Translations under genes and position numbers: made by a program | From: Verrucomicrobiaceae bacterium | Lineage (GTDB): Bacteria; Verrucomicrobiota; Verrucomicrobiia; Verrucomicrobiales; Verrucomicrobiaceae | DNA: 64,000 bases | Direction: 5' to 3' | Assembly (NCBI GenBank): GCA_016795465.1 | Contig: JAEUHK010000059.1 | Span: 1 to 64,000 of the forward strand | Notes under the pieces: generated by a model | The model's database searches: none | Seen by the model: the letters and a program-made list of their open reading frames with translations, nothing else | Told to the model about the DNA's origin: nothing | In this document: positions 21,135 to 47,869 of the stretch, piece after piece | Numbering within the stretch: position 1 is the first letter of the stretch | Layout: each line of letters opens with the position of its first letter

Positions 21135-22850
21135 TCACCTGGCGAGCTTCAGGAAGGCCATCTCTTCATCGAGCAACAGGCCTTCCGGCACCTTCTCGGC
21201 AATCTGGAAAGCCTCGGCAGGTTTGCCAGTCGTGGCGAGGAGTCCGCTGAGAACAGCACGGCGCCCAGGCGGCATGCCATCGGCTTTGAGGTGGCTGCTC
21301 ATGACTTGGTCCAATGTACCGCGATCTCCGAGACGATAGGCGGCGAGGGCGCGGAAGAGCGCCGGCGACTTGGTGGCATCGGAAAGCACGACTTCCATTT
21401 CCTCGCCGAGCAGCAGTCGCAGGTAGGCGAGCTCTTCGGCGATCTGTGCATTGGCGGGATTCATCTCCTGGAGGCCGCGAGTGACTTCGAGCAAGGCCCG
21501 CGTGTCCTTTGAGCTCTCGGCGATGGTTTTGGCATGCAGCAGGAATTCCGAGCGACGTGCCTCGACGGCGGTGGCGAGGTGCAAAAGGCCTTCGAGCGCG
21601 AGCTCCGGCATTCCTAGACGCTCGCTGAGACCGGCGGCGAGCTCGAGCTCCTCGAACTCTCGGGCGGCGATGGCGGACTCGATGGCAAAGCCGAGCTGGC
21701 GGCGGGATTCCTTCATGTCGGGCTGTAGATGACTCTCGGCATCGGCGAGCCAGATGGAGACGAGGGTGTTGGAAACGGGCGGGCGCTTGCTGGGGAGAGC
21801 CTGCTTCATCTCCTGCCAGCGGCCTTCACCGGCGAGAGCCTTGATGAGCGCGGTGAAGAGCGGACGCGAGGACATGGCGAGTTGCGGCGGGACGATCTTG
21901 AGCAGCAAGGCGTGCTCGTGATGCGCGGCGAGCCACGCGGCCATCTCGACGAGCGTGCCGGCCTTCTCGGTTTCAAAGCGTGAGACCTCGCGGCGGATCA
22001 ATTCGTCCTTTTGCTCCGGAAAGAAGCGGATGAGGGCGCTGACAATGTCGAGCCGGACGCCGAGATCGGCATGCGGATGACCTTCGACGATAGGGAGCAG
22101 ACGCTTCGCATCTTCGGCGGTGAGCCGCGCATCCCGCAGGATGGCACGCGCGGCGGCGATGCCGACAGGCGGCGGGAGATGGCAGAGCGCCCAGAGCTCG
22201 GTCCATGACTGGTTGCGATACTCCGGGAAGGCGCTGCGGCTGTTTTCGATGGCAAACTCAAGCCGGGCCTCCGGCGAGTCTTTGTCGAGAAGACGTGCTT
22301 TGCGGGCGGAATCGACGGCTGCGGTCGTCTGACCTTCGGCAGCTTGCAGGCGGGCAAGCATCGCGAGCGCCTCGGGAGTGCTGGCGGCTTCGGCGGGCAG
22401 AGCAGCATGCACGCGGCGAGCTTCATCAACGCGGCCGAGCTCGACGAGGCAGGTACCGTAGAGCAACTGGTCCTCGATGGAGAGCGGCTGCTTTGTGGCG
22501 AGCAGGCGGAGGTGGTAGGCGAGCTCACGACGATCACCCTTCACGAGCTTCAAATACTGGATGATGGCGTGAAGCACCCCCGGTTCCTCCGGCGAGAGGT
22601 TTCGTGCCTCGATGAGCTCGGCGATGGCATGGCCCATGTCATCGGCCTCCATGGAAACGACGGCCTCGCGAGCATGTGAACGTGCCCAGGCATCCCGCAG
22701 CGCGGTGCGGGCAGGACGCCAGACGATACCTGCGACGACAACAAGGCCGACGACGGCGATCAGCCACACGCTGAATCGTCCAAGCACCGGCACCTTGGGC
22801 TGGTGATACTCGACCGGTGTATCATTTTGAGGCTGGAAGTCGAAGGACAT
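21135..22850 (-). CDS. Membrane-anchored TPR-type repeat protein at end of TPS operon
   Basis: A 571-residue protein: a short cytoplasmic N-terminus, one transmembrane helix at about residues 27-45 (FSVWLIAVVGLVVVAGIVW), then a long all-helical domain of degenerate TPR-like repeats (for example ALAMLARLQAAEGQTTAAVDSARKA). The topology places the repeats in the periplasm. It is the last gene of the minus-strand TPS run, 45 bases after the stop of the giant haemagglutinin gene, with a dispersed repeat in that gap. A scaffold or assembly role for the secretion system is inferred from position only. Confidence 0.75.
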   Translation of the reverse strand: MSFDFQPQNDTPVEYHQPKVPVLGRFSVWLIAVVGLVVVAGIVWRPARTALRDAWARSHAREAVVSMEADDMGHAIAELIEARNLSPEEPGVLHAIIQYLKLVKGDRRELAYHLRLLATKQPLSIEDQLLYGTCLVELGRVDEARRVHAALPAEAASTPEALAMLARLQAAEGQTTAAVDSARKARLLDKDSPEARLEFAIENSRSAFPEYRNQSWTELWALCHLPPPVGIAAARAILRDARLTAEDAKRLLPIVEGHPHADLGVRLDIVSALIRFFPEQKDELIRREVSRFETEKAGTLVEMAAWLAAHHEHALLLKIVPPQLAMSSRPLFTALIKALAGEGRWQEMKQALPSKRPPVSNTLVSIWLADAESHLQPDMKESRRQLGFAIESAIAAREFEELELAAGLSERLGMPELALEGLLHLATAVEARRSEFLLHAKTIAESSKDTRALLEVTRGLQEMNPANAQIAEELAYLRLLLGEEMEVVLSDATKSPALFRALAAYRLGDRGTLDQVMSSHLKADGMPPGRRAVLSGLLATTGKPAEAFQIAEKVPEGLLLDEEMAFLKLAR

Positions 22851-22863
22851 GAGGGGAAATGAT

Positions 22864-22890
22864 GAATGACGAATGCCGAAGGACGAATGA
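22864..22890. repeat. Dispersed spacer repeat, GAATGACGAATG family, copy 1
   Basis: A 27-base copy of a short dispersed repeat starting GAATGACGAATG and ending GGACGAATGA, in the spacer between the TPR gene and the haemagglutinin gene. It matches the copy at 34980-35006 at 25 of 27 positions. It contains no gene. Repeats of this type often give spurious 'FVIRHSSF'-like peptides in Verrucomicrobia and Planctomycetes genomes (from memory). Confidence 0.8.
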
Positions 22891-22895
22891 GTGGG

Positions 22896-25800
22896 TTATT
22901 CGGCACCGCCGCGGCGTTTGCGCTCGTCTTCGTCACTGGTGCCTTCACCGCCGCCGTAGCCGAGGATCTCGACAGTGATGACGGAGGGTGTTTGAGAGTC
23001 TTGCTTGGTCTCCTGGGTCTGCTTGGCGGCCTGCTGTGCGGCGGGAGAGTTGCTGGTGGCAGCAGTGGCGGCCGCGGCGCTGGCGAGACCACCAAGCGAC
23101 GGCGTGGCGACGGATGGAGCGGCGGCAGAACCGGCACTCGTGCCTCCCACGGAGATGTTTGCGGCATTCAGCACGACGGCGGCGGCGATGTTGAGATTGC
23201 CCGTGGCACGAATGCCGGCATCGCCCGCATCCACCGCACCGATGGGCGCGATCAGATCAACATTGCCCGGACGCACGCCCGCGACGGTGGCAAGCACGCC
23301 AATGCCACCACCCGTGGCGAGACCAGCGAGGTCCGTGGCCACGGCAGCACTCGATGGATCAATGATGACGCGGGTGGGCGGTGCGGACTGGACCGTCTTG
23401 GACGATGAACCAGCGGCGATGTCGCCGATGCTCGACCAGATGGTGATGTCGCCACCGCGGAGGGTGAAGATACGAGCGATGCCGATGCTAACGTCGTCAT
23501 TGGCAAAGACAGAGATATTGCCGCCCGACTCGGAGATGATGCCAGGAGGCGCGAGCGTCTCGCCGAGCACAGTGGAGGCAAGTTGTAGGCCACCACCGGG
23601 GGCGAAGATGCTGATGTCTCCGCCGCTCTTGGTGCGCACATCGCGTGCCTGGGTGTAGATGCTGCCGGTGCCAAAGAGAGGCACATCCCGCGCCGGGTCA
23701 TACGGCTGAGTGGCTCCTCCTGCAGCAATCGGGCCACCAATGATGGGTGGTCCGATCCCAATGACTGGTGGGGCATTAAAGAACAGGGCGTCAATAGCCT
23801 TGTCTCCAGCCGCGTAGGTGCCTGCATCAGGGCTATCAGGATTGTTTCGATCACGACCGGCGTTTCGCAGAGCCACGTAGAAAAGGCCGAGCGCGAGCTG
23901 TTTTTGCTGCTCGGAGGTCAAAGCGGGATTGTTGAGATCCACGAACGGCACTCCGAGCAATTCGGCGAGGTCCGCTAGATTTCGCGGTGTGCTGAAATCA
24001 GTGATCAACCGATTGAAATCGAGTTGGCTGCCGCCGAGCCCCGTTGCCACGCCTCCGAGGCCTGCGGCCAGCACAATGTCCGCGCCCTCAAAGGGCAGGA
24101 AGGGATTGCGGCCGTTGCCGATGCTGTTGATGCCGGTGCCGGTGCCGTCCGAATTGTTCGCGCCGGTGCCGAGATCGAGGTCACGACCGGCGAGCACTTG
24201 GAGCGTGCCAGGACCATTGATCTGGATGTCGCCTGCTTTCGGACGCTCCGTGGAGGAGGGCAGGTTGCCGGTGGCGACGGCTGCGGTGCGCAGCGGTGAG
24301 TTGGCATTGTAGGCAATGATGTCGCGTCCAGCGGAGACGAGCGTGAGATCACTGCTGCGGACATTTTGAATGTAGAACGCGATGTCGGAGATGTCGCGTG
24401 AGGCGAGGATGGAGGATGCTTTGCCGGAGAAGAGCGTGAGGCCGGAGATGTCGCCACCCGAGGCATAGATGCGCAGCGGAGAGGTGTCTGCGACGTGCAG
24501 CACACCCGGTGCATGGAGCTGCTGCTTGGCCTGCGTGGTAGCAAACTTGCCCGAAGTGGAGCCGGACTCGGTGAGCACGGTGTTCAGATTGTCGAGGAAA
24601 GTGGCGCTGGTGAGGCGTGCCGTGAGGTTGTTCACGGCGGTGGGCGCGGCAGGATTAAAGAAGGTCTCGTAATAGGAGTAAGGCTTCAGCACGCCGGGGA
24701 TCGAGGCGGGATTCGCGTCGGAGAGATTCACCGTGGCGGAGCGCCAGACGGTGGTCTGGCGGCCGGTGAGGATGGTGGAGGACACACCGGTGGGCACCAG
24801 GCCGTTCAGCGCCCCGGCGGCGAGCAACTCCAGCGTGCCGGTGGGTGAGGGAGACAGGTTCATGCGGCCGGCGAGCGAGATATCGCCGCTGAACGCGATG
24901 GCCTTCAACGTGCCCGGCATGAGCGTGGTCAGCGTCTCAAACGGAGCGACTGCCGTCTCGGCGAGGCGCAGCCACGGCTGGTAGGCCGACGCGGAGCTGG
25001 AGCTGAGCAGGAGGAGATCGCTGAGCCAGAGCGAGAGGATGGAGGAAGGCTCCGCGGTGCTGGCGAGCGTGGCTGCCTGACGAATCGTGACATCGCCACC
25101 GAGCGAGGCGACATTGACCGCGCTATCGGCCGAGTAGGTGGAGAAGTAGGTTTTATACCAGTGACGGTTCGTGAGGCCCTGCGGGAGCAGGAAAGTGTTC
25201 ACAGCAGGCCCGAGCAGCACATCACCGCGAGCGCTGACATCAAAGCTGCTCTTGCCAAGGAAGAGCGTGGTGGGCATCCAGGTGTCCTGCGGCTGCACGG
25301 CATTGCCGGAGGCCAGACGGCCAAGTGAGATGGAGCGCGTGGCATTCGTGGTGATGGCTCCACCGGCGGTCAGCGTGCCGGTGCCGCGCTCGACGTAGTA
25401 AATGCCGCCGTCGATGTTGCGACCGGACAGCACGGTGACATCACCACCGCCGAGTTCGAGCAATCCGGCGGCACTGGGCGTGCCGCGGGCAGCACGGGCA
25501 TTCGTCGGCGTATGGGCGCTGACGTTTTGCACATCGCGTCCGGCTTCGAGCACCACGTTTCCACCGCCGAGAGCGGCCACGCCGTCGAAGAAGTTGCTGA
25601 AGTTCACCCACCAGGTCGTGGAGGCTGCGACGTCGTTGATGCGCTGGATGCCGCTCTGGCGCACGTCGATGTTTCCGTAGTCCCCGGCGGCATTCACATA
25701 ACCGCGGCGCAGGAGCCAGTTGGTCGGGAGCTGGCGCGATGAATCCGCCACCAGCGTGCCAGCATCCCGCGTGAGATGCACGATGTCATTGCCTGCCTGC

Positions 25801-28800
25801 ACGCTCACATTGCCGCCTGCCATGCTGTATTGCACCGCGTAGAGCTGCTGCACGGCACCAAGCTCGGTCTGCGGCACGTTGGCGGTCACGTTGGGCAGCA
25901 CGAAGTCGTTCGCGGTGAAAATAGTCGTGGCAGCGGGCACGGTGACACCGGCGGTGTAGATCGTGGCAAACTGGTTGAGGAGCTGCACATCGCGTCCGGC
26001 ATTGATTTCGATATCGCCGGTGCCGGTGCGGATCACCTGGAAGCGGTTCGTGGCTGTCGGTGTGCCGCTGGTGGCGGTATTGTTCTCCGGGTTGATAGCG
26101 AGACGTGTGAGGGCATTCGTGCCGGGCGAGCTGTTGGCACCGGAACTCGTCGGCACGGCCTGTCCTGCATCTTTGCCGAGCAGGAGAGAGCCTGAGTCCG
26201 CGGCAAGCGAGGCCAGCGCATAGGTCTGGCGGACGTTCGCGGCGGTCACATCGGCGCCGGAGGTGAGGCGGAGGTTCCACGACTGGGAGTTCACCGGCAC
26301 GTTGGTGTTCAGCGTGCTGAGCGTGCCCATCCACATGCGCTCGACGAGCGCACCGGAGGTGGCGAGTGTGAAACCATCGCTGAGCGTGTTGTAGAACTCG
26401 AGATTGCCCGTGGCACGCATCGTGAGCGTGCCCGCGGCGTTTTTCGGGCCGTAGCGGAAGGTGGATAGGTTCCAATCAGCGAGCGCGGCGGAGGTCGGTG
26501 TGCCCAGCGAGATGCTGCCGCCGCTGTTCACGATCTCCACGCCGGGTTGGAGCACGGAGACGGACTGGATCGAGGTGTTTCCACCGAGCAGCCTCGTGAA
26601 CATGGCGTTGTAGTTCGCCATGAAGCTCGTGTTGTTGTTGTTGTGGATCGTGGTCGTGTTGAGTGTCTCGCCCGGGATGGCAGTCGTTCCGGCACGAAGG
26701 ATGACGTTGGCCTGATTGAAGCTGTAGGTGCGGAAGCCTTCGATTTCGATGCTGGAGGCGTCGAGGAAGGTGCCGGCGATGGGATCCATGAGCAGATCGT
26801 TAAAGGTGCCATTCTGGCGGGCGCGGAGATGTACCTTGCCGCTGAACTGGCCGCGTGAGGCGCTGTCAGTCGTTTTGGCATCGACACGCAGATCAAGCGT
26901 GGAGCCGGAGGCGATGTTGAGGCTGCCAGCGCCGGTCGATTCGATCCAGATGGCACCGCCTTTGCCTGCGCTGTCGAAGTTCTGGCCGCGCACCGTCAGC
27001 GTGGAGCCGTTCATCAATGCCACACCACCGCTGGCGATGAGATCAATGCGTCCGCCGGCGCTGCCGGAGGCGTTGATGGTGCCGTTGACGATCAACGCGC
27101 CGTTGTCGAGCGCGAGGAGGAAGCGTCTGGCATTCACCGTGCCATCGATGCTGATGCCACCATTGCGCACACGAAGATCCCGCGAAGCGGTGAAGGCACC
27201 GGCGTTGAGGCGGTCGTTCAAATCGGCAAATGAAGTCAGCGTGCCGACATCAAGCTCGAAGCTGGCGGTGGCGGCTCCCTGGCCTGCAAGCATGCCGTTG
27301 AACACGAACTGGTTCGCGGCCTTCACGGTGAGCGTGCCCGCATCGCCGCCGCCGGTCAGCGCGGCGAGGTTCACGAGGCCGTTGGTGCCGATGATCACGT
27401 TTCCAGCATCCGCCGTGAGTGAGACACGACCTGCATCGGTGAAGCGCGTGACATCAAAAAAGGCCTGCGAGATCCCGCCGGCATTCAGCGTGCCGTTCAC
27501 CGTGACATCGCCGGTGGTGGCCAGCAGCGAAATGAGGCCGCTCGGCAGGAGGACATCGCTTTCGGCGAGAATGGAGCTGCCTTCGAACGTGAGCGAGGCT
27601 CCCAAACCGAGCGTCGAAGGCGCAAACGATGTCGCTGGCTTGCTGAGGTGCAGCAGGCTGCCGGCGGCGATGAGCTGCGAGGCCTTGCTCTCGGCCCTCA
27701 CGAAGGGCGAGACGATGTTGAGGGCGTTTTGAGCACGGAAGGAGCCCGTGTCGCGCACGGTGACACCTTGCGCGGCGGTGAGCGTGACCGTGTTGAACTG
27801 GTCGATGGCGAGCGCGTTCTGGCCGAGGGTGATCGTGTTGGCCGTGAGATTGAAGCTGCCCGTGGCCGCCGCGGCGGTGCCCGGCACGGTGGCGAGGGCG
27901 CTGTTGTCCAAAACGAGGCTTTGAGCCGTGAGATCAATGCTGCCGCCGTTTTGATTGAATCCGCGGATTTCACCCGCGTGAAGCTCCAAGGCTCCCGCGG
28001 AGGCAAACGAGCCCGTGCCGTAAAAATCAATCGAGGAGTAGCTGAGCAGTGAAAGCGAGCTGGAGGCTTGCAAAGCACTCAAAAGACCTCCGCCGAGCAC
28101 GAGACCTGCATTTGGCTGCAAGGCTCCCGCATTCACCAGTTGGATGCTGATGCGTCCGCTGTTGAGCTGGATGGCGCTGGCGGTGAGCTGCGTGGTGATA
28201 TCCAGGCTCGTGGCATTGGTGGAGTCGAGTGTGACGGTGCGGCCGGAGATCACCGCGTTCGCGCCGATGCTGAGCGAAGGAAGCGCGGAGGCCGTCACAC
28301 CCCTGCGGGAGGTTTGCGCCCCCGTCACGCCGCTGACGCGGACGAAGGCACCATTGCCGCCCAGCACAAAAGCATCCGCGGAGGACTGCGAGCCGGTTTG
28401 CAGGAGGGAGGAATCCGCCGCGAGCGTCAGGTTTTGAGTCGCGGCGAGCAGCACGTCCGTGCCGAGAAGGGGCGAGCCGGCGTTGTCGAGCGTGAGATTG
28501 GTCGTGCGCACGGTGATGCTGCCCGAGCTGGAGCGCTCACCACCGACGAGGAGGCTTTCTGCGTTCCAGGCGCTGAGCAGCGCGGCATTCAAGACGAGCT
28601 TTCCAGGCTGTGCCGGTGCTCCGGGAGCCGCTATGACGATGTCGAGCGGGCTGCTGACATCGACACGGCCTCCACGAGCATTGGTGGCTCCCGCCGCGCT
28701 GACGAGACCCGCGAGCTGCATCGACTGCTGCGCTCCGAGAAGCGCGTAACCCGCATCCAGCGGGCCGCGTGTGACGGGCAGGCTGAGCCGCTGCTGGGCG

Positions 28801-34208: not shown

Positions 34209-34217
34209 GAAAAGGGA

Positions 34218-35039
34218 TCAGGGTTTGGTTTGGGTGCCCAGCTTTGACAGCGCCACCCCGTCGATGGCCACAGGGTGCTGCTGTAACAATTTCGCCATGT
34301 AGGCCTGCATGTTGGCGCGAGTCTTTTGAGCGCGAAGCTGGCGTGTCAGGGGCTCGCGCACCTGCTCAAGGAAGGGCGTGTGAGCCTCGCGCACATCGAG
34401 GACCTTCAAGATGTGCCAGCCGTCGCCGAGCTTCAGCGGCTCGGAGATCACGCCGAGGGCCAGCTTCGGAAGCTTCGCGAGGATCTCGGGCTGGATCTGC
34501 GACTCGGTGAGCCAGCCGAGCTCACCATCGCGTTTCGCACTGGCCTGATGCTCGCTCATCTCGCGGGCGATTTGGGCAAAAGAAGCCGGATCAGCCTTCA
34601 ACCGGGCCTTCACGGCCTCCAGCCGGTCTTCACTGACAAAAATCTGCGCGAGGTGAAATGAGCGCGGAACCTTTAGCGAAGGCTTCGCGGCCTCGTAAGC
34701 GGCCTTCAGCTCGTTTTCGCTCGGAAAGTCGGCCGGAGGCTCGGCGAGTTTTTTCAGGTAACTATCCGCGATGGCGGCCTCGCGGGTGTTTTGGATCAGC
34801 TTTTGCGTTTCAGGCTCCTGATCCCATTTCTTGTCGAGTGCCTCTCGGAGCACCAAACGCTGCACCAGCATGGCCTCGGTCACTTTGCGAAGCGAAGCAG
34901 CGTCGAGTGAGGACGCGTTTTCGATTTCGGAAGCGTGAAGCTCGATCTCACCGATGCGGGCGATGACGGTGCTTTCGGCGAATGACGAATGAGGAAGGAC
35001 GAATGACGCAAGAATGACGAGGCTCCCATGACGAAGCAT
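34218..35039 (-). CDS. Periplasmic parvulin-type peptidyl-prolyl isomerase (SurA/PpiC-like)
   Basis: A chaperone/isomerase of about 273 residues with an N-terminal SurA-like helical region and a parvulin domain (about 130-235: RSFHLAQIFV, FAQIAREMSEHQASAKRDGE, LGWLTESQI, GDGWHILKVLDV). The chosen ATG at 35039 gives a typical signal peptide ending in HSSFA. An ATG at 35093 overlaps the upstream stop (ATGA) but adds 18 repeat-derived residues. The haemagglutinin gene follows after 9 bases, so the likely job is keeping that giant substrate, or the outer-membrane partners, competent in the periplasm. Unusually, part of the signal peptide is encoded by a dispersed repeat copy. Confidence 0.87.
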   Translation of the reverse strand: MLRHGSLVILASFVLPHSSFAESTVIARIGEIELHASEIENASSLDAASLRKVTEAMLVQRLVLREALDKKWDQEPETQKLIQNTREAAIADSYLKKLAEPPADFPSENELKAAYEAAKPSLKVPRSFHLAQIFVSEDRLEAVKARLKADPASFAQIAREMSEHQASAKRDGELGWLTESQIQPEILAKLPKLALGVISEPLKLGDGWHILKVLDVREAHTPFLEQVREPLTRQLRAQKTRANMQAYMAKLLQQHPVAIDGVALSKLGTQTKP

Positions 35040-35093
35040 TCGGGCCTTCGACATTCGGGCTTCTTTCGTCATTCTGGTTTCGTCATTCGTCAT
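34980..35093. repeat. Dispersed spacer repeat, inverted pair, copies 2 and 3
   Basis: Two oppositely oriented copies: GAATGACGAATG-type at about 34980-35020 and TTCGTCATTCGTCATT-type at about 35066-35093, separated by roughly 45 bases. The left copy matches the 22864 repeat at 25 of 27 positions and lies inside the signal-peptide codons of the isomerase gene. The right copy reaches the end of the coiled-coil gene. Being inverted, they could pair in mRNA as a hairpin covering the isomerase start. Confidence 0.75.
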
Positions 35094-35779
35094 TGCTGAA
35101 CGGGTTTTTGGACAGCGGCGGCCTGCTCCTTCGTGGCGGCCGGCTTCGGGGCATCGCCTGGCTGGATCTTGCCGTCCTCGAGCTTGTCGCCGAAGTCCTG
35201 GACGTAATTCTCGAGCTTCACCCGCATGCTCTTGGTGAATGGCTCGCGGGAGGTAAGGGCGGTGCCGAGGCCGAAGCCTTCATACTTGGCGAGGATTTCC
35301 TGGCCGATGTTGTAGAGGTCGAGGTTCTTGCGATTCGCATCGGCCAGCTTGCGCTCGGCGAGGATGGCACGCGCGGCATGCTCGGCACGCTGCGCGTCGA
35401 TCTTCTTGGCGGCATCGACGACTTCGGCGTGGCCTTTTTTCCATGCGGCGAGGGATTCCTGGAGGCGGACGATCTCCGCGCCCTGCTTCGCGGCCTTGTC
35501 TTGAAGGTCAGCGATGGCTTTGGAGTCCGTCTCCTTTTGGAGATTGCTCTCCTTGGCGAGCTTTTTGAGGTTGGCGTCGAGCGTGGAGACTTTTTCCTCC
35601 AGAGTGACCTTCTCCGCGGCGAGGGCGGCGCGTTCCGCCTCGGTCTTCTGCTGCTGGAGCATGATGGTGCGAAGCTGGTCACGCATGCGCTTGAGCGCGG
35701 CCATGGCCGGATCAGCCTCCTCGGCGGCTGGAGCGAGAGTGGCGGTGAGGATGAGGAGCAGGATGAGGGACTTTTTCAT
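35090..35779 (-). CDS. Exported coiled-coil protein
   Basis: A 229-residue protein with a signal peptide (MKKSLILLLILTATLAPA, cleavage near residue 19) followed by a long alpha-helical coiled coil rich in Lys, Glu, Ala and Gln, from about residue 25 to 160 (for example AAEKVTLEEKVSTLDANLKKL and DLQDKAAKQGAEIVRLQESL). It should be periplasmic. It sits between the porin gene (3-base gap) and the isomerase gene (4-base overlap), so it belongs to the TPS/Ton run. A spacer between outer-membrane and inner-membrane parts is possible, but no specific family is recognised. Confidence 0.78.
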   Translation of the reverse strand: MKKSLILLLILTATLAPAAEEADPAMAALKRMRDQLRTIMLQQQKTEAERAALAAEKVTLEEKVSTLDANLKKLAKESNLQKETDSKAIADLQDKAAKQGAEIVRLQESLAAWKKGHAEVVDAAKKIDAQRAEHAARAILAERKLADANRKNLDLYNIGQEILAKYEGFGLGTALTSREPFTKSMRVKLENYVQDFGDKLEDGKIQPGDAPKPAATKEQAAAVQKPVQQ

Positions 35780-35782
35780 GGA

Positions 35783-37750
35783 TCAAAACTTGGCGGAGAA
35801 GTCGAAGAGGAAGACATCCGAGCGGAGCTGCGGCCCGGCGATCTGGTCGGCGCTCATGTAGGCCATGCGCACCCAGATCCGCTTCGAGAGGGCCATGGCG
35901 GCATTGAGGCTGTAGCCCTCCATGTTGGTGCCGCCGAAGCCGAAGACGGAATCGGTGAAGCCGTCGATGACCGCATCGGACTCGACGTGACGGTAGCCGA
36001 TGCCCAAGGCCCAATCGCCGCGCTTGTCGAAGGAATTGACGGGCTTGCCGACATTGATGCCCATGTACCAGGCTGTGTCGCCGCCTTCCCACTCGCCGTT
36101 TCCACCGTTGCGGTTGTTCACGACCGCGTCAGCACGCGCGAGGTTCTTCATGTCCCCCTTGTTCAAGCCCACGTTTTTGATGAACTCGCCCAGCAGCGAG
36201 ATCTGCACCGGCTCGAAGTGATTGAAGTCCACGCGTCCAGCCCAGGCGAGCTGGCGGAACTTGGTGGCGAGACCGAAGTATTGGAACTGGTTGATCGTGC
36301 CATTCAAGTTGCCGCCGGGAGCCGCTCCGGGCGTGGCGGTGATGTTGCGGATGGGGCGGTAGGTGTTGCCCTTCTGCGCAAAGAGCGGGCGGCTGTCGTC
36401 GGTATCACCCGCGTCATTGGCGCTGGCGGGCACAAACGGGCTGGAGAAGCGGCCTTCGAGCTTCTGCCAGTCGTAGTAGGCGAGGCTCGACTTCACCTCG
36501 ATGTCATCGGTAATCTTGAACTGCACACCAAACTGCGCGGCGAGGAGGTACTTGTTGTAGCTCTCGGTCTTCGAGGTGTTGTGCTCGCCCACGTTGAAGG
36601 CGCTGTTGAAGACCGGAAAAGCACCGGCGGTGAGGAAGGTGGAGAAGCCGGGCGTCCATCCCTGGTTCATTTTGAAGGCCACGCCATCGAGTCCCACGTC
36701 CTCGTCCCACATGATCTGGCTGGAGGTCATGAACGGATTGTCAAAGCGGCCGAGCCAGACGAGCAGCTTGCCGTGCTCATGATAGGACGCCTCATACTGG
36801 ATGAAGGCGCGGTCGAGCCAGAGCTCGTATTTGGAGAAGTTTCCGCCCGCGGAGTTGTTGTTCGCCGAGCCGAGCGTCTGGTTCGTGGAAACCGGAGAGT
36901 TATTCGCACCAGTGGCCATGCGGATGCCGGCGGTGAATCCGTCTTCGAGGTCGATGTCGAAGCCCAAACGCATGCGCAGACGGGTGCGCTCACGGTCTTG
37001 GTCTGAATTGAGCTGCGGTGGCAGCGTTCCAGCGAGGTTCGTGAGATCAAAGGGGAGACCGCTGTTGATCGCGTGAAAGTTCGGGAAGGCGCCGATGAGC
37101 GAGTTTTCGGCGGGGAACATGAAGTTGTCATACCGCATGCGGATATCGCCAAAGAGACCGGTGCGGCGCGTCCACTCAGGGATGTCAGCCGCTCCAGCCC
37201 ACTTCTGGGATCGTGAATCGGCCATGATCTCACTGCGGAGCTGGCTGCGAATCTCCTCTTTGACGGACTCAGGAATGTAAGTGACACGCACTTCTTCCTT
37301 GTCGGGCTCCAGCGGTGGCAAGGCGGATTGAGCAGCGACGGCGGCCTGTGTGTCGGCGAGGGCTTGTGCTTGAGCCTGGGCCATCTGCGCTTCTTGCTCG
37401 GCGCTTTTCACGAGGTCGGTGGCATCCGCCTTCGTGAGAGCACCGCGTTCGACGAGCTTGTTGATGAGATTGATGACCACACTCTCCGTCGCGGTGGCCT
37501 GCGGGCGTGTTTTGATGGCATCCGGCTCAGGCAGAAGAGCAACCGGTGGAGGCAGATCGGCGGCTGAGGGAGCAGGAGCAGGCGGCGGCACGGCGGCAGC
37601 GCCTTCCTTCATTTGAGGGACGGCGGTTTTGGCCGGAGTAACCTCGGCGAGTAGAGGAAGCGGGAGATCGGGTTCCTTCAATTCGGGCACCTGGGCTGCC
37701 ACGGGCAGCGCGAGGAGGAACAGGAGGGAGGAGCGACGGAGGATGAGCAT
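35783..37750 (-). CDS. Putative outer-membrane porin of the TPS/Ton run
   Basis: A 655-residue protein with a signal peptide ending VAAQ (about residue 20), a Pro/Ala-rich region, then a predicted helical segment (VINLINKLVERGALTKADATDLVK) and a beta-barrel from about residue 190. The barrel shows alternating aromatic strands such as RTGLFGDIRMRYDNFM, FEPVQISLLGEFI and ALGIGYRHVES, and ends with phenylalanine (FDFSAKF), the usual outer-membrane signal. The pattern matches the 'putative porin' family. It could be the outer-membrane partner of the adjacent TonB, although no TonB box or plug domain is visible. It follows the TonB gene by 26 bases. Confidence 0.83.
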   Translation of the reverse strand: MLILRRSSLLFLLALPVAAQVPELKEPDLPLPLLAEVTPAKTAVPQMKEGAAAVPPPAPAPSAADLPPPVALLPEPDAIKTRPQATATESVVINLINKLVERGALTKADATDLVKSAEQEAQMAQAQAQALADTQAAVAAQSALPPLEPDKEEVRVTYIPESVKEEIRSQLRSEIMADSRSQKWAGAADIPEWTRRTGLFGDIRMRYDNFMFPAENSLIGAFPNFHAINSGLPFDLTNLAGTLPPQLNSDQDRERTRLRMRLGFDIDLEDGFTAGIRMATGANNSPVSTNQTLGSANNNSAGGNFSKYELWLDRAFIQYEASYHEHGKLLVWLGRFDNPFMTSSQIMWDEDVGLDGVAFKMNQGWTPGFSTFLTAGAFPVFNSAFNVGEHNTSKTESYNKYLLAAQFGVQFKITDDIEVKSSLAYYDWQKLEGRFSSPFVPASANDAGDTDDSRPLFAQKGNTYRPIRNITATPGAAPGGNLNGTINQFQYFGLATKFRQLAWAGRVDFNHFEPVQISLLGEFIKNVGLNKGDMKNLARADAVVNNRNGGNGEWEGGDTAWYMGINVGKPVNSFDKRGDWALGIGYRHVESDAVIDGFTDSVFGFGGTNMEGYSLNAAMALSKRIWVRMAYMSADQIAGPQLRSDVFLFDFSAKF

Positions 37751-37776
37751 GAGAGAAAAAGAGATGCGGCTGGGTT

Positions 37777-38472
37777 TTAGCGGCCGTTGAAGCGCATGAT
37801 GACGGGCATGGGCGTGCCTGGAGGTGCGGGTTCGAGCACCTGACCCACGAGGGCGCGATTCTTGAGCATGTCGTCATGCTCGGGATTGCCGGTGGAGCCG
37901 TTCAAGACGACGCGGGTGATGCGGCCGGAGTCATCCAGCCACACGCGGAAGGGCACGCTGCCCTTCGCAAACTTCAGGCCGGCATGGCGGGAGAGGATTT
38001 CCTGCACACCACGACCAAACTTGCCCTGCCAGCGGCCTCGCTCGGAGTAGCCGCGACCGCTGCCCGTGCCACCAATGCCCATGCCACCCATGCCGCCACC
38101 GGCTCCGAGACCGCTGCTGCCATCACCACCGGTCAATGCAGTGCCGATGGGCTCATCCGCGGGTTTGTCCGCAGGCTTGTCCTGGGCATCGGGTGGAGGT
38201 TCTTCCTCCGCGGCGACTTCTTCTTCCTTTTCCTCCGGAGGTGGAGGCTCTTCCTGCTTCGGCGGAGGTGGAGGCGGTGGTGGCGGAGGAGGCATCACCG
38301 GCATGATCATGACCATGTCCATCTTCTTCTTGGCCTTGGTCTCCTTCGATGGCTTCGCGGTGGCAAAGTAGTAACCGCCTCCGCCGAGCACGAGGAGGCT
38401 GAGAATGATCATGACAAGGTTCCGGCGGAAGAAGCCTGGCTCATCATCGTCTGGAAGATCGCGTGGATTCAT
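37777..38472 (-). CDS. TonB-like energy transducer
   Basis: A 231-residue protein with the TonB layout: short cytoplasmic N-terminus, one membrane helix at about residues 18-38 (LVMIILSLLVLGGGGYYF), a periplasmic spacer with an 11-proline run and Glu/Pro repeats, a Gly-rich linker (GLGAGGGMGGMGIGG), and a C-terminal domain of about 90 residues (SVPFRVWLDDSGRITRVVLNGSTGNPEHD) matching TonB C-terminal folds. It would carry proton-motive energy from ExbB/ExbD to an outer-membrane protein. It lies directly between exbD-like (6-base gap) and the porin gene. The Gly-rich linker is unusual for TonB. Confidence 0.88.
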   Translation of the reverse strand: MNPRDLPDDDEPGFFRRNLVMIILSLLVLGGGGYYFATAKPSKETKAKKKMDMVMIMPVMPPPPPPPPPPPKQEEPPPPEEKEEEVAAEEEPPPDAQDKPADKPADEPIGTALTGGDGSSGLGAGGGMGGMGIGGTGSGRGYSERGRWQGKFGRGVQEILSRHAGLKFAKGSVPFRVWLDDSGRITRVVLNGSTGNPEHDDMLKNRALVGQVLEPAPPGTPMPVIMRFNGR

Positions 38473-38478
38473 GGCGGG

Positions 38479-38880
38479 TTATTTTTTGGCCTGGGTGGCG
38501 AGACCGATCTGCGTGATGCCGAGTCGGCCGACGACGTTGAGGACATCCATGATGCCCTGGTATTGCGAGGCGCTGTCTCCACGAATCACGACGGGGAACT
38601 CCGGCGTGGAGGATTTCAGCGCCTCCAGCTTGGAAGACAGCTCATCGAGCGTGACCGGGATTGTGTTGAGGAAGATCTTGCCCTCGTTGTTGACCGTGAT
38701 GGCCTGCATCTTCGGCCCTTCGAGTGGCTTCGAGCTTGCCGGGCCGCCACGCGGCAGATTCACCTTCACGCCCTGCACGCCGGCGGTGGTCATGATGATG
38801 AAAATCAGCAGCAGCACGAGGTAGAGGTCCACCATCGGCGTGACGTTGATGTCGTCGTAGCTTTTGTCGTCGGCTTGCAT
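38479..38880 (-). CDS. ExbD/TolR-family proton-channel subunit
   Basis: A 133-residue inner-membrane protein. The N-terminal NVTPMVDLYLVLLLIFIIMT gives the single transmembrane helix, with the conserved Asp (MVDLYL) that takes part in proton flow. The periplasmic domain follows (VKVNLPRGG, VVIRGDSASQYQGIMDVLNVVGRLGITQIGLAT). It is preceded by the ExbB gene (6-base gap) and followed by tonB-like (6-base gap), forming a complete ExbB-ExbD-TonB cassette. TolR is the alternative, but the TonB neighbour and absence of tolA/tolB/pal favour ExbD. Confidence 0.92.
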   Translation of the reverse strand: MQADDKSYDDINVTPMVDLYLVLLLIFIIMTTAGVQGVKVNLPRGGPASSKPLEGPKMQAITVNNEGKIFLNTIPVTLDELSSKLEALKSSTPEFPVVIRGDSASQYQGIMDVLNVVGRLGITQIGLATQAKK

Positions 38881-38886
38881 GGCGGT

Positions 38887-40710
38887 TTAGGATTCCTTGT
38901 GGTGTTCGGCCATCTTCGCGATGAACTCGTCGATGAAGGTCTCCATGTTCGTGACCACATCCTTGATGCGTGAGCTGAGGTAGGAGTAGATGAACAGCGC
39001 CGGAATGGCGACGGCGAGGCCGGCGACGGTGGCGAGAAGAGCACCCGCGATACCCGGAGCGATGCTGTTCACCTCCACCTCACCGCTTTTCGCGATGACG
39101 GCGAAGGTGATCATGACGCCGATGACGGTGCCGAGCAGGCCGAGGTAGGGACCACCGGCGATGCCGATGGTGAGGAAGACGAGCTTGCCATTGAGCTTCT
39201 GCACCTCGCGGACCATGCCGCCATGCAGCGTGGCCTTGATTGCTTGGATCGAGCGGCCGCTGAGGCCTTTGGTGGGCTTCACACCACCCTTCTCACGTGG
39301 ACCTGGCCCGTCCTTGAGGCGGTGATTGATCTCTTCGCTGCCTAGATGGTAGATCTGATACAGCGGCGATTGGCGCATCAGCTTCATCGATTTGGCACTG
39401 GCGGTGCCGCCGAGGGATTTGACGCTGTTTTCATCCTCGTGGTCAATGGAGGTCAAATCGGACGAAATGCTATGCCAGCGCTTCAGAAACTCCTTCGAGG
39501 CTTTCTCGATGGTGTTGAGGTAGAAGAACTTTCCGAGTGCGATGGCCCAGCCGACGATGGCGAGCAGCGTGCAGAGGAAAATGACCACCCAGCCGTCGAA
39601 GGTGAGGTCCTTCGAGATGTCTTTGATGAGCGTGAGGTGCTTCGTGATCTCGCTTTCCTCCTCGTGATCGCTGGCTTCATCCGAACCGACCGCAAGAAGC
39701 TTCTGCGCATCAGCGGTGGTGCCCTGGTTCATCGCGGCGAAGGCGATGAAGCCAGCGGGGCAGGCCGTTTTGGCGATTTGCAGCTCATCAAGCTCACCGG
39801 TGTAGCCAGTGAGTCCGGCTCCGGTGCTGTCCTTGCTGATTTCGAGCGGTGTCTTGAGCGAAGGCATGGGCGCGGCGAGCTGGCCGTAGGATTTGCCATT
39901 CACATACACCGTGGTCGTTCCGGCATCGTGCACGGCGGCGAGATGGGTCCAGGCACTGGCGGAGACGGGTGCTCCAGGGCTGCTGCGCTGCTTATTGATC
40001 TCGATAAACGGCACACCGTTGTTCAAGCCGAGCACGAGAGCATTGGCGCCATCGCGACGGCTGAGGATGACGGCATCCGCGGCGAGCGCGGAGGGTTTCA
40101 CCCACACGGAAATCGTCAGCGGAGCACCGGGAGCCCATTCGGGCAGTGTGTTGACCTTCACTGGTGTTTGTCCAAACACACGCAGGCCACTGCCGATGAG
40201 CGCACCCGCGGCAGGAGGCGGAGCACCCTCGGCATTCGCACCGGTGGCGGAGGAGTCGGTGCCGACCTTTGCCGCATCGGCGAAGTGATAAACGAGCACG
40301 CTGTCCGCGGTGTAGGTCTCTTTGGCGGCCTCCGGAGCCGGAGCGGCCGAATTGCCGTAATAAAGCCAGATGGTCGTGGAGGCTGCGGGCTTCAATTCGG
40401 GCACCTGCACCCAGACGTAGGCTTCATTGAGGAGCGAGTCCCACTTCTCGACGTGATGCTTGAGCACCGTTTTGTGATCATCCGCCGTGAATCGCAGATC
40501 GCTGCCGTCTTCCTTGGCACTCATGAAGCTCATCACGCCTTCATGAAGGCGCACGAGCACAGCGCTGGTGCCGATGGGATCGGTGATGGCAGCGGCCTTG
40601 GTGTCGATGTCGATCTTTTTGCGGATCGTGTAGCCCGGATCGAGCCAGAGCTTTTCTTCCGCGTGGAGGGCGGTGGCGAAGGCGAGGAGGCAGAGGAGTT
40701 TCTTGAGCAT
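38887..40710 (-). CDS. ExbB/TolQ/MotA-family channel with N-terminal exported DUF2341 and LamG-like domains
   Basis: A 607-residue fusion starting MLKKLLCLLAFATALHAEEK, a signal peptide. An ATG 12 codons upstream lies in repeat-derived sequence and is rejected. Residues about 20-140 match DUF2341 (AVLVRLHEG, DGSDLRFTADD, YVWVQVPEL, TTIWLYYGNSAA). About 150-320 is a LamG/concanavalin-like domain (ISVWVKPSALAADAVILSRRDG, WTHLAAVHDAGTTTVYVNG, GELDELQIA). The last 230 residues form the ExbB channel: GWVVIFLCTLLAIVGWAIALG, then LGLLGTVIGVMITF and ATVAGLAVAIPALFIYSYL. The gene heads the ExbB-ExbD-TonB cassette after TpsB. The exported module could sense or bind an envelope ligand; that is inference. 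Confidence 0.9.
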   Translation of the reverse strand: MLKKLLCLLAFATALHAEEKLWLDPGYTIRKKIDIDTKAAAITDPIGTSAVLVRLHEGVMSFMSAKEDGSDLRFTADDHKTVLKHHVEKWDSLLNEAYVWVQVPELKPAASTTIWLYYGNSAAPAPEAAKETYTADSVLVYHFADAAKVGTDSSATGANAEGAPPPAAGALIGSGLRVFGQTPVKVNTLPEWAPGAPLTISVWVKPSALAADAVILSRRDGANALVLGLNNGVPFIEINKQRSSPGAPVSASAWTHLAAVHDAGTTTVYVNGKSYGQLAAPMPSLKTPLEISKDSTGAGLTGYTGELDELQIAKTACPAGFIAFAAMNQGTTADAQKLLAVGSDEASDHEEESEITKHLTLIKDISKDLTFDGWVVIFLCTLLAIVGWAIALGKFFYLNTIEKASKEFLKRWHSISSDLTSIDHEDENSVKSLGGTASAKSMKLMRQSPLYQIYHLGSEEINHRLKDGPGPREKGGVKPTKGLSGRSIQAIKATLHGGMVREVQKLNGKLVFLTIGIAGGPYLGLLGTVIGVMITFAVIAKSGEVEVNSIAPGIAGALLATVAGLAVAIPALFIYSYLSSRIKDVVTNMETFIDEFIAKMAEHHKES

Positions 40711-40735
40711 GTGAGAGGTCAGAAGTGAGAAGTTA
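40711..40735. repeat. Short AGAAGT-type tandem repeat in the TpsB-ExbB spacer
   Basis: The spacer holds imperfect units of the form AGAAGTKAG (reading GTCAGAAGTGAGAAGTTAG) and on the minus strand reads as 'NFSLLTSH'-like peptide, a phrase I associate with another spacer repeat of Verrucomicrobia and Planctomycetes. It provides the TAA stop of the TpsB gene. No gene lies in it. Confidence 0.6.
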
Positions 40736-42400
40736 GAAGTCGGCACCGACGCGGAAGGTCATGTAGAGATGCTGTGCGATGGCGTTTGGTTGCGTGATGA
40801 GCGGCATGCCGAGATCGAAGGAGCCGTAGATATGGTCCTGCCAGCGGATGCGGGTGCCCACGCCGATGCTGGCGAGGGCGTGCCCGTGTTTTTCACCCGC
40901 CAGCGGATCATTGACGGCAAGCTGTGCGCCTTCTGCGAAGAAGTAGGCACGCCAGTCATTGGCCTTGTCCTTGCCATCGCCGATGAAGGAAGGACTGCGC
41001 AGTTCCATGGAGCCCATGATGCCGGAGTCACCGAGCTGCGTGGCGATCAAGTAGCCACGAACGGTGTTGATGCCGCCTGCGGCGATCTGCTCGGTGTTGA
41101 TCAGCGCTGACGGCGAAATCTGCCCCTGCAATCGGGTGTAGAACTGCATGCCTCCGGGGAGGTCATGCGTGTGCGAAAGGTCCGCACGAAGGTAGAAGAA
41201 GTTGTCCCTGGCCCCGCGGCGCCTGTTGTTGAAATCATTCTGCGAACCACCCATGCCGCGGAGATGTAACACCACGGAGGTGTTGAACTCCGTGAAGCTG
41301 TGCTCCTCCACGCGGCTGAGCGAGTAGGAGAGCGTGAAGGGATAATAGACGATGGGTGAGGCGATCACCGCGCCGCCAGCGTTCACATCCTGGATGAAGT
41401 CCTTGTAGTCCATCCCGGCGCTGAGGCTGTGAAACCAGCCTTTTTCAGCGGGCAGCGTCTTCATGAAGCGCACGCCATAGACCTGGCCTTTGCCCACCAC
41501 GGTGCCGCCGCCGAGGGTGGAGATATTGCTGTCCTGCCACGAGCCGTTCACCATGACGCTCCACTCGTTCTCCAGCGGCATCATGTAGTAGGCGGAGAGC
41601 ACGGTGCCGTCCGATTGCTTCTCCGGGGCGACTTGGAAGCTGGTGCCGATGGTGTGGCCGAGCTGCCAGAGGTTCGAATAGCTCAGCGAGCCGTTCAGAC
41701 GCAGCGGGACAGTGTTGGAGTTGTGGATGTTGTTGAGCTCGAGGCTGCCGTGGAAGGGGTTCTTGTCCTCGACGATGAGATCAATGTCCACCGTGCCTGG
41801 CACCACGCCCTGACGCAGCTCCGGCGTGATCTTGCGATCCCGCCAGCGGTTCAAAGCGATGATGTCCTTCTGCACCTCGTTGAAGTTTGGCACGCTGCCC
41901 TCGGCCATCGACTTGGCCTGCTCCTTGATCTTGCTAGGCAGGAAATACTTCGCGCCTTTGACGCGGAGCCTGCCGACGGGAGCTTCGACGACGTTCAAGA
42001 AGATCACGCCGCGTGCGCCGGTCTGCCGCGGCACTTCGACATAGACGGTTTGATAGCCGAGGCTGCGATACGCTTTCTCCAGTCCCTGCCGCGCCTGCTC
42101 GATGTCATTCTCGGAGCGTCCGGGACCGAGGAAGGGATACACGGCCTTCTCGATGTCGATGGCCTTGAGCTTCGTGTTTCCACGCACGCGATACTCCTGG
42201 ATGTAGAGCGGGCCGACTTGCGAGAGCGCGGTGGGTGTGGTGTCAGCGGCAGCAGGTGTCTCGGCCACCTTCGGCGGCGGAGGCGGCAGATCCTCACCCT
42301 GCGCCTGGGCCATCAGCGCTCCGCAGCAAGCAGCGAACGCGACGGAGCGTGCTGTCTTGAAGGTGGAACGTGCTGAAGCGGATGAGGTAAAGCCGGTCAT
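40733..42400 (-). CDS. TpsB two-partner secretion transporter (ShlB/FhaC/HecB family)
   Basis: Outer-membrane Omp85-type protein of about 555 residues that exports the TpsA haemagglutinin. The ATG at 42400 (MTGFTSSASA) gives a leader with AFAACCGALMAQAQG; an ATG 11 codons upstream is possible. After a Pro-rich linker come two POTRA domains (about 60-220: YIQEYRVRGNTKL, ENDIEQARQGLEKAYRSLGY, VGRLRVKGAKYF, NFNEVQKDIIALNRW). The 16-strand barrel follows, with the conserved L6 tip GGINTVRGYLI and C-terminal TFRVGADF. POTRA style and VRGY are family hallmarks. It is the first gene of the proposed TPS/Ton transcript, and ExbB starts 22 bases after its stop. Confidence 0.92.
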   Translation of the reverse strand: MTGFTSSASARSTFKTARSVAFAACCGALMAQAQGEDLPPPPPKVAETPAAADTTPTALSQVGPLYIQEYRVRGNTKLKAIDIEKAVYPFLGPGRSENDIEQARQGLEKAYRSLGYQTVYVEVPRQTGARGVIFLNVVEAPVGRLRVKGAKYFLPSKIKEQAKSMAEGSVPNFNEVQKDIIALNRWRDRKITPELRQGVVPGTVDIDLIVEDKNPFHGSLELNNIHNSNTVPLRLNGSLSYSNLWQLGHTIGTSFQVAPEKQSDGTVLSAYYMMPLENEWSVMVNGSWQDSNISTLGGGTVVGKGQVYGVRFMKTLPAEKGWFHSLSAGMDYKDFIQDVNAGGAVIASPIVYYPFTLSYSLSRVEEHSFTEFNTSVVLHLRGMGGSQNDFNNRRRGARDNFFYLRADLSHTHDLPGGMQFYTRLQGQISPSALINTEQIAAGGINTVRGYLIATQLGDSGIMGSMELRSPSFIGDGKDKANDWRAYFFAEGAQLAVNDPLAGEKHGHALASIGVGTRIRWQDHIYGSFDLGMPLITQPNAIAQHLYMTFRVGADF

Positions 42401-42461
42401 GTGTGCCGGGCTGTCTTTGTTCGCGGAGGGCACTGCCTCAACAAGGCCACGGTTACGAATG

Positions 42462-43298: not shown

Positions 43299-43333
43299 AA
43301 AAAGCTGGTGCTGACCTCGCGGCCAGCACCAGC
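43299..43333 (-). terminator. Rho-independent terminator after the PstS-like gene
   Basis: On the minus strand a 10-base perfect stem (GCTGGTGCTG with CAGCACCAGC, at 43304-43313 and 43324-43333) with a 10-base loop is followed by five T residues. It lies 28 bases after the stop of the PstS-like gene and separates that gene from the TPS region. Confidence 0.85.
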
Positions 43334-47778: not shown

Positions 47779-47869
47779 TGGCGGACAGAGAGGGATTCGA
47801 ACCCTCGGTACCGGATTAGGGTACACACGCTTTCCAGGCGTGCTCATTAGACCACTCTGACATCTGTCC
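47779..47869 (-). tRNA. tRNA-Ser (anticodon GGA)
   Basis: On the minus strand the sequence folds as a tRNA: a 7-base acceptor stem (GGACAGA with TCTGTCC), a D-arm (GAGTGGTCTAATGAG), an anticodon stem-loop with GGA (CGCCTGGAAAGCG), a long variable arm typical of tRNA-Ser, the T-arm GAGGGTTCGAATCCCTC, and an encoded CCA after the discriminator G. The GGA anticodon reads UCC and UCU codons. Without the CCA the gene is 88 bases (47782-47869). Confidence 0.96.

What the first reader, a model, noticed from the sequence alone, without database searches (positions are those of the whole stretch)
21135..42400. TPS haemagglutinin system built into one run with its own ExbB-ExbD-TonB, porin and isomerase
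Nine consecutive minus-strand genes with very short gaps encode TpsB, ExbB, ExbD, TonB, a porin, a coiled-coil protein, a parvulin isomerase, a 3,770-residue TpsA and a TPR protein. Classical two-partner secretion needs only TpsB and TpsA and no energy coupling at the outer membrane. Energy from a dedicated Ton cassette could power secretion, release, or uptake through the porin. I have a vague memory of similar gene sets in some Proteobacteria, so absolute novelty is not claimed.
Basis: partly seen in the sequence, partly recalled or inferred. Interest (0 to 1): 0.85.

Follow-up and report, generated by a model that had tools for sequence, protein, structure and literature searches.

The report
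Energised adhesin-secretion operon (pdt type)
A Prosthecobacter-like bacterium carries a known but uncharacterised operon in which the machine that exports a giant surface adhesin is always packed with its own proton-driven TonB-like motor. We find that only adhesins with one particular tail keep this motor, which makes it testable whether a secretion system thought to need no energy is powered after all.

Summary
A minus-strand run (42433→21135) encodes TpsB, DUF2341-LamG-ExbB, ExbD, a TonB-like protein, a Porin_5 porin, a coiled-coil protein, PpiC and a 3,770-aa TpsA. The ninth gene (TPR) is not conserved. This is the pdt-type locus already known from P. aeruginosa (pdtB-exbB2-exbD2-tonB4-PA0696…PA0699), where the Ton genes are co-transcribed, induced by phosphate starvation and functionally uncharacterised. 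So the arrangement is not new.

New here: (1) Six genes (TpsB to coiled coil) occur together in 52/52 loci with enough flank, from Verrucomicrobiota and Proteobacteria. (2) The cassette pairs with DUF3739-type TpsA only: 9/9 of 289 Verrucomicrobiota genomes and 22/23 Burkholderiales genomes; 33 Verrucomicrobiota genomes with other TpsAs lack it. (3) These TpsAs share an unannotated C-terminal motif (P-S-h-h-x-V-E-h-h-G-Y/F-G; about 32/32 against 0/18 controls) that resembles a TonB-box docking strand. (4) TpsB seems to lack the plug helix. (5) In Verrucomicrobiota a PstS-fold protein and usually a PEP-CTERM protein sit beside the cassette, extending the phosphate theme.

Favoured mechanism, unproven: the proton-driven TonB-like protein acts on the periplasmic tail of TpsA to drive or hold its display. 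No experiment shows energy dependence.

The parts
44642..45478 (-). PEP-CTERM secreted protein, conserved neighbour of the cassette
   Evidence: Pfam PEP-CTERM 23.1 bits, over cut-off; family next to the cassette in 7 of 8 Verrucomicrobiota neighbourhoods
43362..44600 (-). PstS-fold (phosphate-binding-protein-like) secreted protein, conserved neighbour
   Evidence: Adjacent in 8/8 Verrucomicrobiota neighbourhoods; only in cassette genomes; AF2 pLDDT 75.5, best 36 PDB matches are PstS/phosphate-binding proteins, E 8e-11; no Pfam or NCBIfam hit
43304..43333 (-). Strong terminator-like hairpin (13-bp stem, T5) between the PstS-like gene and the downstream run; suggests the PstS-like gene ends a separate transcript
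   Evidence: consensus match only
42498..43280 (-). Secreted hypothetical protein between the PstS-like gene and TpsB
   Evidence: no family; no sequence homologue found in other neighbourhoods, though proteins of similar length and place exist
40733..42433 (-). TpsB transporter (POTRA + 16-strand-type barrel); ATG at 42400 also possible as start
   Evidence: ShlB 67.4 bits, POTRA_2 50.8 bits; AF2 model matches CdiB and FhaC; no plug helix predicted N-terminal of POTRA
38887..40746 (-). Proton-channel protein: signal peptide, DUF2341, LamG-like domain, MotA/TolQ/ExbB domain
   Evidence: Pfam; nearest solved relatives TolQ 3e-27, ExbB 1e-18
38479..38880 (-). ExbD/TolR
   Evidence: ExbD 86.6 bits; 63-74% identical in the other Verrucomicrobiota cassettes
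37777..38472 (-). TonB-like protein: one TM helix, proline-rich spacer, TonB/TolA-type C-terminal domain with conserved W-x-D-x-x-G and PPP-x-x-MPMP
35783..37750 (-). Porin_5 outer-membrane porin with Pro-rich N-terminus and SxNVTVNLIN-type segment
   Evidence: Porin_5 587 bits; segment conservation
35090..35779 (-). Periplasmic coiled-coil protein (counterpart of PA0697)
   Evidence: Family in 52/52 loci; alignment
34218..35093 (-). PpiC/parvulin peptidyl-prolyl isomerase
   Evidence: Rotamase 60.5 bits; 36/52 loci
22896..34208 (-). TpsA, 3,770 aa, N-terminal TPS domain (res. 136-320) and DUF3739 (res. 3585-3694)
22953..22988 (-). C-terminal tail motif PSVITVEILGYG of TpsA (res. 3741-3752), TonB-box-like
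21135..22850 (-). TPR protein, 45 bp after TpsA; lineage-specific, not core
   Evidence: No homologue in other neighbourhoods
46203..47632 (-). Response regulator (best NCBIfam match PhoB, below cut-off) and histidine kinase upstream; syntenic in a Prosthecobacter MAG; role in regulation only possible

Best explanation
This is a pdt-type, Ton-coupled two-partner secretion operon of a Prosthecobacter-like verrucomicrobium. Sec delivers TpsA to the periplasm, PpiC (and perhaps the coiled-coil protein) keeps it export-competent, and TpsB threads it N-terminus first through the outer membrane (inferred from TPS homology). The ExbB/TolQ-like, ExbD and TonB-like proteins form a proton-driven inner-membrane motor (inferred from homology). 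The motor works on the TPS pair, not on a TonB-dependent receptor, because it goes with one TpsA type and no plugged receptor is in the cassette (pairing shown; target inferred). Most likely (inferred) the TonB-like C-terminal domain grips the conserved C-terminal strand of TpsA that stays in the periplasm, and uses force to gate or finish export, or to hold and release the displayed fibre. The porin and PstS-like protein suggest that the display serves nutrient, probably phosphate, scavenging (inferred).
For: Gene order conserved in 8/8 Verrucomicrobiota and in proteobacterial plasmids; six genes in 52/52 named loci. DUF3739 TpsA and DUF2341-ExbB coincide in 9 of 9 among 289 genomes (P about 3e-17, ignoring phylogeny), while 33 genomes with other TPS-domain proteins lack the DUF2341-ExbB; 22 of 23 in 200 Burkholderiales; 15/15 cassette genomes have DUF3739 TpsA. 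C-terminal motif in 31/32 by regex (the last fits by eye), 0 in 18 control TpsAs totalling 49,531 aa. TpsB N-terminal linker too short or disordered for a plug helix. The TonB profile also hits the STN-domain regulator next to the Methylosinus cassette. P. aeruginosa: phdA promoter transcribes pdtB, the Ton genes and PA0696-0701; PhoB/VreI control (PMC4971064). Precedents: FhaB keeps its C-terminal prodomain in the periplasm (PMC8263021); colicins carry TonB boxes, and TonB boxes pair with TonB by beta-augmentation (PMC11658791).
Against: No experiment found shows that any of these TPS systems needs the Ton genes or the proton motive force. Type V secretion is held to need no external energy (PMC5422565). 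P. aeruginosa tpsA, tpsB, tonB4 and PA0696 insertion mutants stayed as virulent as wild type in zebrafish (PMC2729926). The tail motif could dock on something else (POTRA, PpiC, the coiled-coil protein), and its TonB-box likeness is a resemblance, not a test. The porin has its own conserved N-terminal strand that could be the TonB target instead.
Confidence: 0.45

Rival explanations
1. The Ton cassette energises uptake, not export: TonB-like protein acts on the Porin_5 protein (or a receptor elsewhere), TpsA captures a substrate at the surface, and a binding protein such as the PstS-like one takes it onward, as in the HxuCBA haem system.
For: Porin in 52/52 loci with a conserved N-terminal strand after a Pro-rich linker; PstS-fold neighbour in Verrucomicrobiota; phosphate-starvation control and high PA0696 abundance in P. 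aeruginosa (PMC4971064, PMC9769906); HxuCBA precedent (PMC5422565).
Against: The porin has no recognisable plug or TonB-dependent receptor domain. The cassette tracks DUF3739 TpsA, not TPS systems in general. PstS-like protein was found only in Verrucomicrobiota loci.
Confidence: 0.25
2. The Ton-like cassette works like Tol-Pal or a tether: it stabilises the envelope or fixes the large TpsB/TpsA/porin complex to the cell wall and inner membrane while a 3,800-aa protein is exported, without driving transport.
For: The ExbB and ExbD are nearer to TolQ/TolR than to ExbB/ExbD (TolQ 113.9 against ExbB 60.4 bits, TolR 91.4 against 67.4); the TonB-like domain matches TolA as well as TonB; ExbB carries a periplasmic LamG-like domain.
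Against: No Pal or TolB in the cassette; does not explain the TpsA tail motif or the exclusive link to DUF3739.
Confidence: 0.2
3. Neighbours by shared regulation only: genes of a phosphate-stress regulon that travel together, with the Ton genes serving an unlinked function.
For: All are co-regulated in P. aeruginosa (PMC7035377); PhoU and a PhoB-like regulator lie beside the cassette in G013.
Against: Order kept across two phyla and between cassettes with different regulators; one-to-one link with a single TpsA type in both phyla. PHO-box scan shows no overall enrichment.
Confidence: 0.08

Closest known systems
Pseudomonas aeruginosa pdtA-pdtB / exbB2-exbD2-tonB4 / PA0696-PA0699 locus (VreI-PUMA3 regulon)
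   Same: Same gene set and order: TpsB, ExbB, ExbD, TonB, porin, PA0697, PpiC, with TpsA nearby. A Klebsiella plasmid with the full P. aeruginosa layout carries homologues of all the core genes.
   Different: No sigma/anti-sigma/VreA genes seen beside the window cassette, no YbjN gene, TpsA is downstream in the same run, and a PstS-fold and a PEP-CTERM gene sit upstream. P. aeruginosa proteins themselves could not be compared here.
Methylosinus sp. C49 plasmid pMSC49a cassette
   Same: Same order, TpsB to PpiC then TpsA; ExbB 47% identical.
   Different: Has sigma factor, FecR and STN-TonB genes upstream, and a YbjN gene.
Classical two-partner secretion (FhaB/FhaC, CdiA/CdiB)
   Same: TPS-domain TpsA and POTRA-barrel TpsB; TpsB model matches CdiB and FhaC.
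   Different: Dedicated proton-channel/TonB cassette, porin and isomerase; TpsB without evident plug helix; TpsA ends in DUF3739 plus a tail motif.
HxuCBA (haem-haemopexin)
   Same: TPS pair in one operon with a Ton-related outer-membrane component (PMC5422565).
   Different: HxuC is a true TonB-dependent receptor; here there is a porin without a recognisable plug, and the Ton motor itself is in the operon.
PstS phosphate-binding proteins
   Same: Fold of the neighbour protein and a GSGT-like loop.
   Different: Only about 10-16% identity, no family hit, not next to a recognised Pst transporter, found only with the cassette in the genomes searched.

Membership tests
Two-partner secretion (type Vb) | TpsA with N-terminal TPS domain | tested here: met
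   PF05860 71.0 bits, TIGR01901 68.6 bits, both over cut-off
Two-partner secretion (type Vb) | TpsB with POTRA domains and Omp85-type barrel | tested here: met
   POTRA_2, ShlB over cut-off; AF2 model matches CdiB/FhaC
Two-partner secretion (type Vb) | N-terminal plug helix of TpsB (FhaC-type H1) | tested here: inconclusive
   None predicted; linker between signal core and POTRA 7-15 residues in several orthologues; low-confidence region, no experimental structure
Two-partner secretion (type Vb) | No external energy source | not testable with these tools
   Needs mutants or uncouplers
pdt-type TPS locus | Conserved order TpsB-ExbB-ExbD-TonB-porin-coiled coil(-PpiC) | tested here: met
pdt-type TPS locus | Sequence homology to the P. 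aeruginosa proteins | not tested
   No P. aeruginosa chromosome was reached; bridged by the Klebsiella plasmid with the same layout and the literature gene list (PMC7035377)
pdt-type TPS locus | VreA-VreI-VreR signalling genes alongside | tested here: inconclusive
   None recognised in the ORFs read from 42.4 to 64 kb; the low end of the window was not annotated; no sigma or anti-sigma search was run
pdt-type TPS locus | Phosphate-starvation control | not testable with these tools
   PHO-box scan inconclusive; PhoB/PhoR-like genes nearby are below model cut-offs
Canonical ExbB-ExbD-TonB system | Equivalog-level ExbB/ExbD/TonB | tested here: not met
   exbB 60.4 of 206.2 bits, ExbD_1 58.9 of 152.95, tonB_Cterm 17.3 of 27.1
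Canonical ExbB-ExbD-TonB system | TonB-dependent receptor with plug in the cassette | tested here: not met
   No plug/receptor family in any of the nine proteins
Tol-Pal | Equivalog-level TolQ/TolR, with Pal and TolB | tested here: not met
   tolQ 113.9 of 221, tolR 91.4 of 127.3 bits; no Pal or TolB among the cassette proteins
PstS | Periplasmic-binding-protein fold of the phosphate type | tested here: met
   Foldseek best 36 hits are phosphate-binding proteins
PstS | Family-level sequence match | tested here: not met
   No Pfam or NCBIfam hit; no relevant PDB sequence hit

The most novel reading that the evidence does not exclude
The conserved C-terminal strand of DUF3739 TpsA proteins is a TonB box on a secreted substrate. 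The cassette's TonB-like protein binds it in the periplasm and uses the proton motive force to drive, gate or reel the adhesin through TpsB, the first energised two-partner secretion system. In Proteobacteria a second TonB-like domain on the VreA-type regulator reads the same tail to report export.
Probability: 0.3. Interest if true: 0.87.

Novelty: new variant of a known kind. Interest (0 to 1): 0.6.

Why it matters
Type V secretion is defined as needing no external energy. A proton-driven cassette that is kept with one class of TPS adhesin in two phyla, together with a tail motif unique to that class, turns 'what powers TPS export?' into a concrete knock-out and binding experiment. It also offers a role for the uncharacterised exbB2-exbD2-tonB4 genes of P. 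aeruginosa and links large surface adhesins to phosphate stress.

Tried and rejected
Chance clustering: rejected. Contaminant contig (genome 7.5% contaminated): rejected, since a neighbouring gene is genus core and the arrangement is syntenic in G516 and a Prosthecobacter MAG. TPR gene as a core part: rejected, no homologue in other neighbourhoods. Hypothetical 42498-43280 as conserved family: not supported by profile search. PHO boxes as evidence of phosphate control across loci: not enriched (Proteobacteria at least 11/14: 38 against 39.5 expected; at least 12/14: 4 against 1; Verrucomicrobiota none beyond chance). PDB sequence search for the PstS-like family: only irrelevant hits, solved by fold search. 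TonB box in the TpsB N-terminus: none conserved. A first regex for the tail motif missed 6 of 32 that fit when relaxed or by eye. Literature: no paper found joining TonB box and two-partner secretion.
Full report
WHAT IS THERE. Nine minus-strand ORFs lie at the stated coordinates and carry the claimed domains: TpsB, DUF2341-LamG-ExbB, ExbD, TonB-like, Porin_5, coiled coil, PpiC, TpsA (TPS domain and DUF3739) and a weak TPR protein. Intergenic gaps are -14, 6, 6, 26, 3, -4, 9 and 45 bp. The host is a Prosthecobacter-type verrucomicrobium: the closest named full-length ExbB is 88% identical, in a Prosthecobacter MAG, and that contig is syntenic with the window. The neighbouring gene at 48042-49416 is found in 20/20 genomes of the genus, so the contig is not the 7.5% contamination.

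IT IS A KNOWN LOCUS TYPE. In P. aeruginosa the VreI regulon holds pdtA, phdA, pdtB, exbB2, exbD2, tonB4, PA0696 (putative porin), PA0697, PA0698 (YbjN family) and PA0699 (PpiC) (PMC2729926, PMC7035377). [quoted passage not shown] The 2009 paper already noted related clusters in Pseudomonas, Burkholderia, Rhodopseudomonas and Janthinobacterium. A Klebsiella plasmid shows the same layout, and its proteins match the window family. I could not compare the P. aeruginosa proteins directly.

HOW TIGHT THE LINK IS. In 289 Verrucomicrobiota genomes, DUF3739 TpsA occurs in nine. The same nine have the DUF2341-ExbB cassette; in eight it is read in full and in G216 the ExbB hit is cut by a contig end. TPS-domain proteins occur in 42 genomes, so 33 have other TpsAs, and none of those 33 showed a cassette-type ExbB. 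The overlap has hypergeometric P about 3e-17, an overstatement because relatives are not independent (six genera). In 200 Burkholderiales, DUF3739 occurs in 23 and DUF2341 in 25; 22 genomes have both. The exception, G438, has its hit at a contig end. All 15 cassette genomes searched have one to nine DUF3739 TpsAs. Among 52 named loci with enough flank, six genes are always present and PpiC in 36. The TPR gene has no homologue in the other neighbourhoods.

THE TAIL MOTIF. Beyond DUF3739 and a low-complexity linker, these TpsAs end in a short strand-like motif. Examples: PSVITVEILGYG in the window (residues 3741-3752; 22953-22988), PSIITVEVLGYG in Methylosinus, PSTISVEILGYG in Klebsiella, and PSVVRVDVLGFGE at the very C-terminus in some Burkholderiales. 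A regular expression finds it in 31 of 32, and the last (ITLEVMGYG) fits by eye; the expression was relaxed after a first version found 26 of 32, so the count is partly fitted. The same relaxed expression gives 0 matches in 18 TpsAs without DUF3739 (49,531 aa; four run off contig ends), and the first version gave 0 in 43,044 aa of cassette TpsA bodies. Eight proteobacterial tails hold a second, similar strand (VQVLGAG-like).

READING THE MOTOR. The ExbB and ExbD are nearer to TolQ/TolR than to ExbB/ExbD and miss every equivalog cut-off. The TonB-like C-terminal domain matches TonB, TolA and HasB weakly but in the right segment, and is strongly conserved at W178, D180, G183, R187, D200 and PPP/MPMP. 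TonB acts by beta-augmentation with a short strand (the TonB box), which also exists on colicins that enter by a TonB-dependent route (PMC11658791). FhaB is retained by its C-terminal prodomain in the periplasm (PMC8263021). Putting these together, I favour a TonB-like domain gripping the TpsA tail; this is inference. In Methylosinus the gene upstream has an STN domain and a C-terminal match to the cassette TonB profile (66 bits), as described for VreA (PMC2729926), so a second reader of the same tail is conceivable.

TPSB. The AlphaFold2 model (mean pLDDT 70.4) matches CdiB and FhaC. Residues 1-73 are disordered apart from the signal helix. Across 74 orthologues (a few with truncated N-termini) the linker between the signal core and POTRA has a median of 30 residues, is Ala/Pro-rich, and is only 7-15 residues in several. 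A plug helix of the FhaC type is therefore not evident. This is a prediction from few sequences.

PHOSPHATE. Beside the cassette in 8/8 Verrucomicrobiota neighbourhoods lies a 384-499-aa secreted protein with GSGT-like and FSDV-like segments, either upstream of TpsB or downstream of TpsA. It is found only in cassette genomes (7 of 289 at E 1e-5, all seven cassette carriers; the two others carry diverged adjacent copies). Its model (pLDDT 75.5) matches PstS phosphate-binding proteins in the best 36 PDB hits, at TM-scores of about 0.4-0.5 by query length. A PEP-CTERM family accompanies it in seven of eight. A terminator-like hairpin at 43304-43333 suggests that it is a separate transcript. In G013, PhoU (over cut-off) and a PhoB-like regulator sit right upstream. 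With the phosphate-starvation control known in P. aeruginosa this makes a phosphate role plausible, but the PHO-box scan was negative overall.

WHAT IS SHOWN AND WHAT IS INFERRED. Shown: gene content, order, exclusive pairing with DUF3739 TpsA, the shared tail motif, and the PstS-fold neighbour. Inferred: that the motor is active, that its target is the TpsA tail, and that phosphate is the purpose. Insertion mutants of tpsA, tpsB, tonB4 and PA0696 in P. aeruginosa did not reduce zebrafish virulence (PMC2729926), which does not test display. Novelty: the locus type is known; the verrucomicrobial form with its PstS-like neighbour is a variant; the tail motif and its exclusive pairing appear not to be described in the papers I could search.

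Noticed in passing
L046:9948-11939 (G252), L048:7533-9512 (G179), L049:15526-17510 (G269): A second class of ExbB/ExbD pair, about 51-60% identical to the cassette ExbB in the channel domain but without DUF2341 and without TPS genes, next to very large (about 1,150 aa) unannotated ORFs and a TPR protein.
   Followed up: partly
window 58049-60066 and 46203-47632: Two response-regulator/histidine-kinase pairs whose best NCBIfam matches are PhoB (both regulators) and PhoR or PnpS (the kinases), all below model cut-offs.
   Followed up: partly
window 43304-43333: Strong terminator-like hairpin (13-bp stem plus T5, minus strand) between the PstS-like gene and the TPS run.
   Followed up: no
L164-L183 and L057 TpsA C-termini: Eight proteobacterial DUF3739 TpsAs carry a second strand-like motif (VQVLGAG type) a few tens of residues after the first.
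   Followed up: partly
G341:C1:1849692-1849907 and G440:C102:14858-15043 (Burkholderiales): DUF2341 in large open frames of 1,354 and 1,381 codons in genomes without DUF3739 TpsA; a different architecture.
   Followed up: no
L055:9397-14495 (Methylomagnum plasmid): ExbB-ExbD-TonB cassette without TpsB next to it; the porin lies about 36 kb away and alkaline phosphatases lie nearby.
   Followed up: no
window 47779-47869: tRNA-Ser (GGA) on the minus strand; it explains a short stretch that matches many places in genus genomes.
   Followed up: yes
L058:2133-5250 (Klebsiella pneumoniae plasmid): TpsA and TpsB of the cassette appear split into several ORFs, so the TPS pair looks decayed while the Ton genes remain open.
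   Followed up: no
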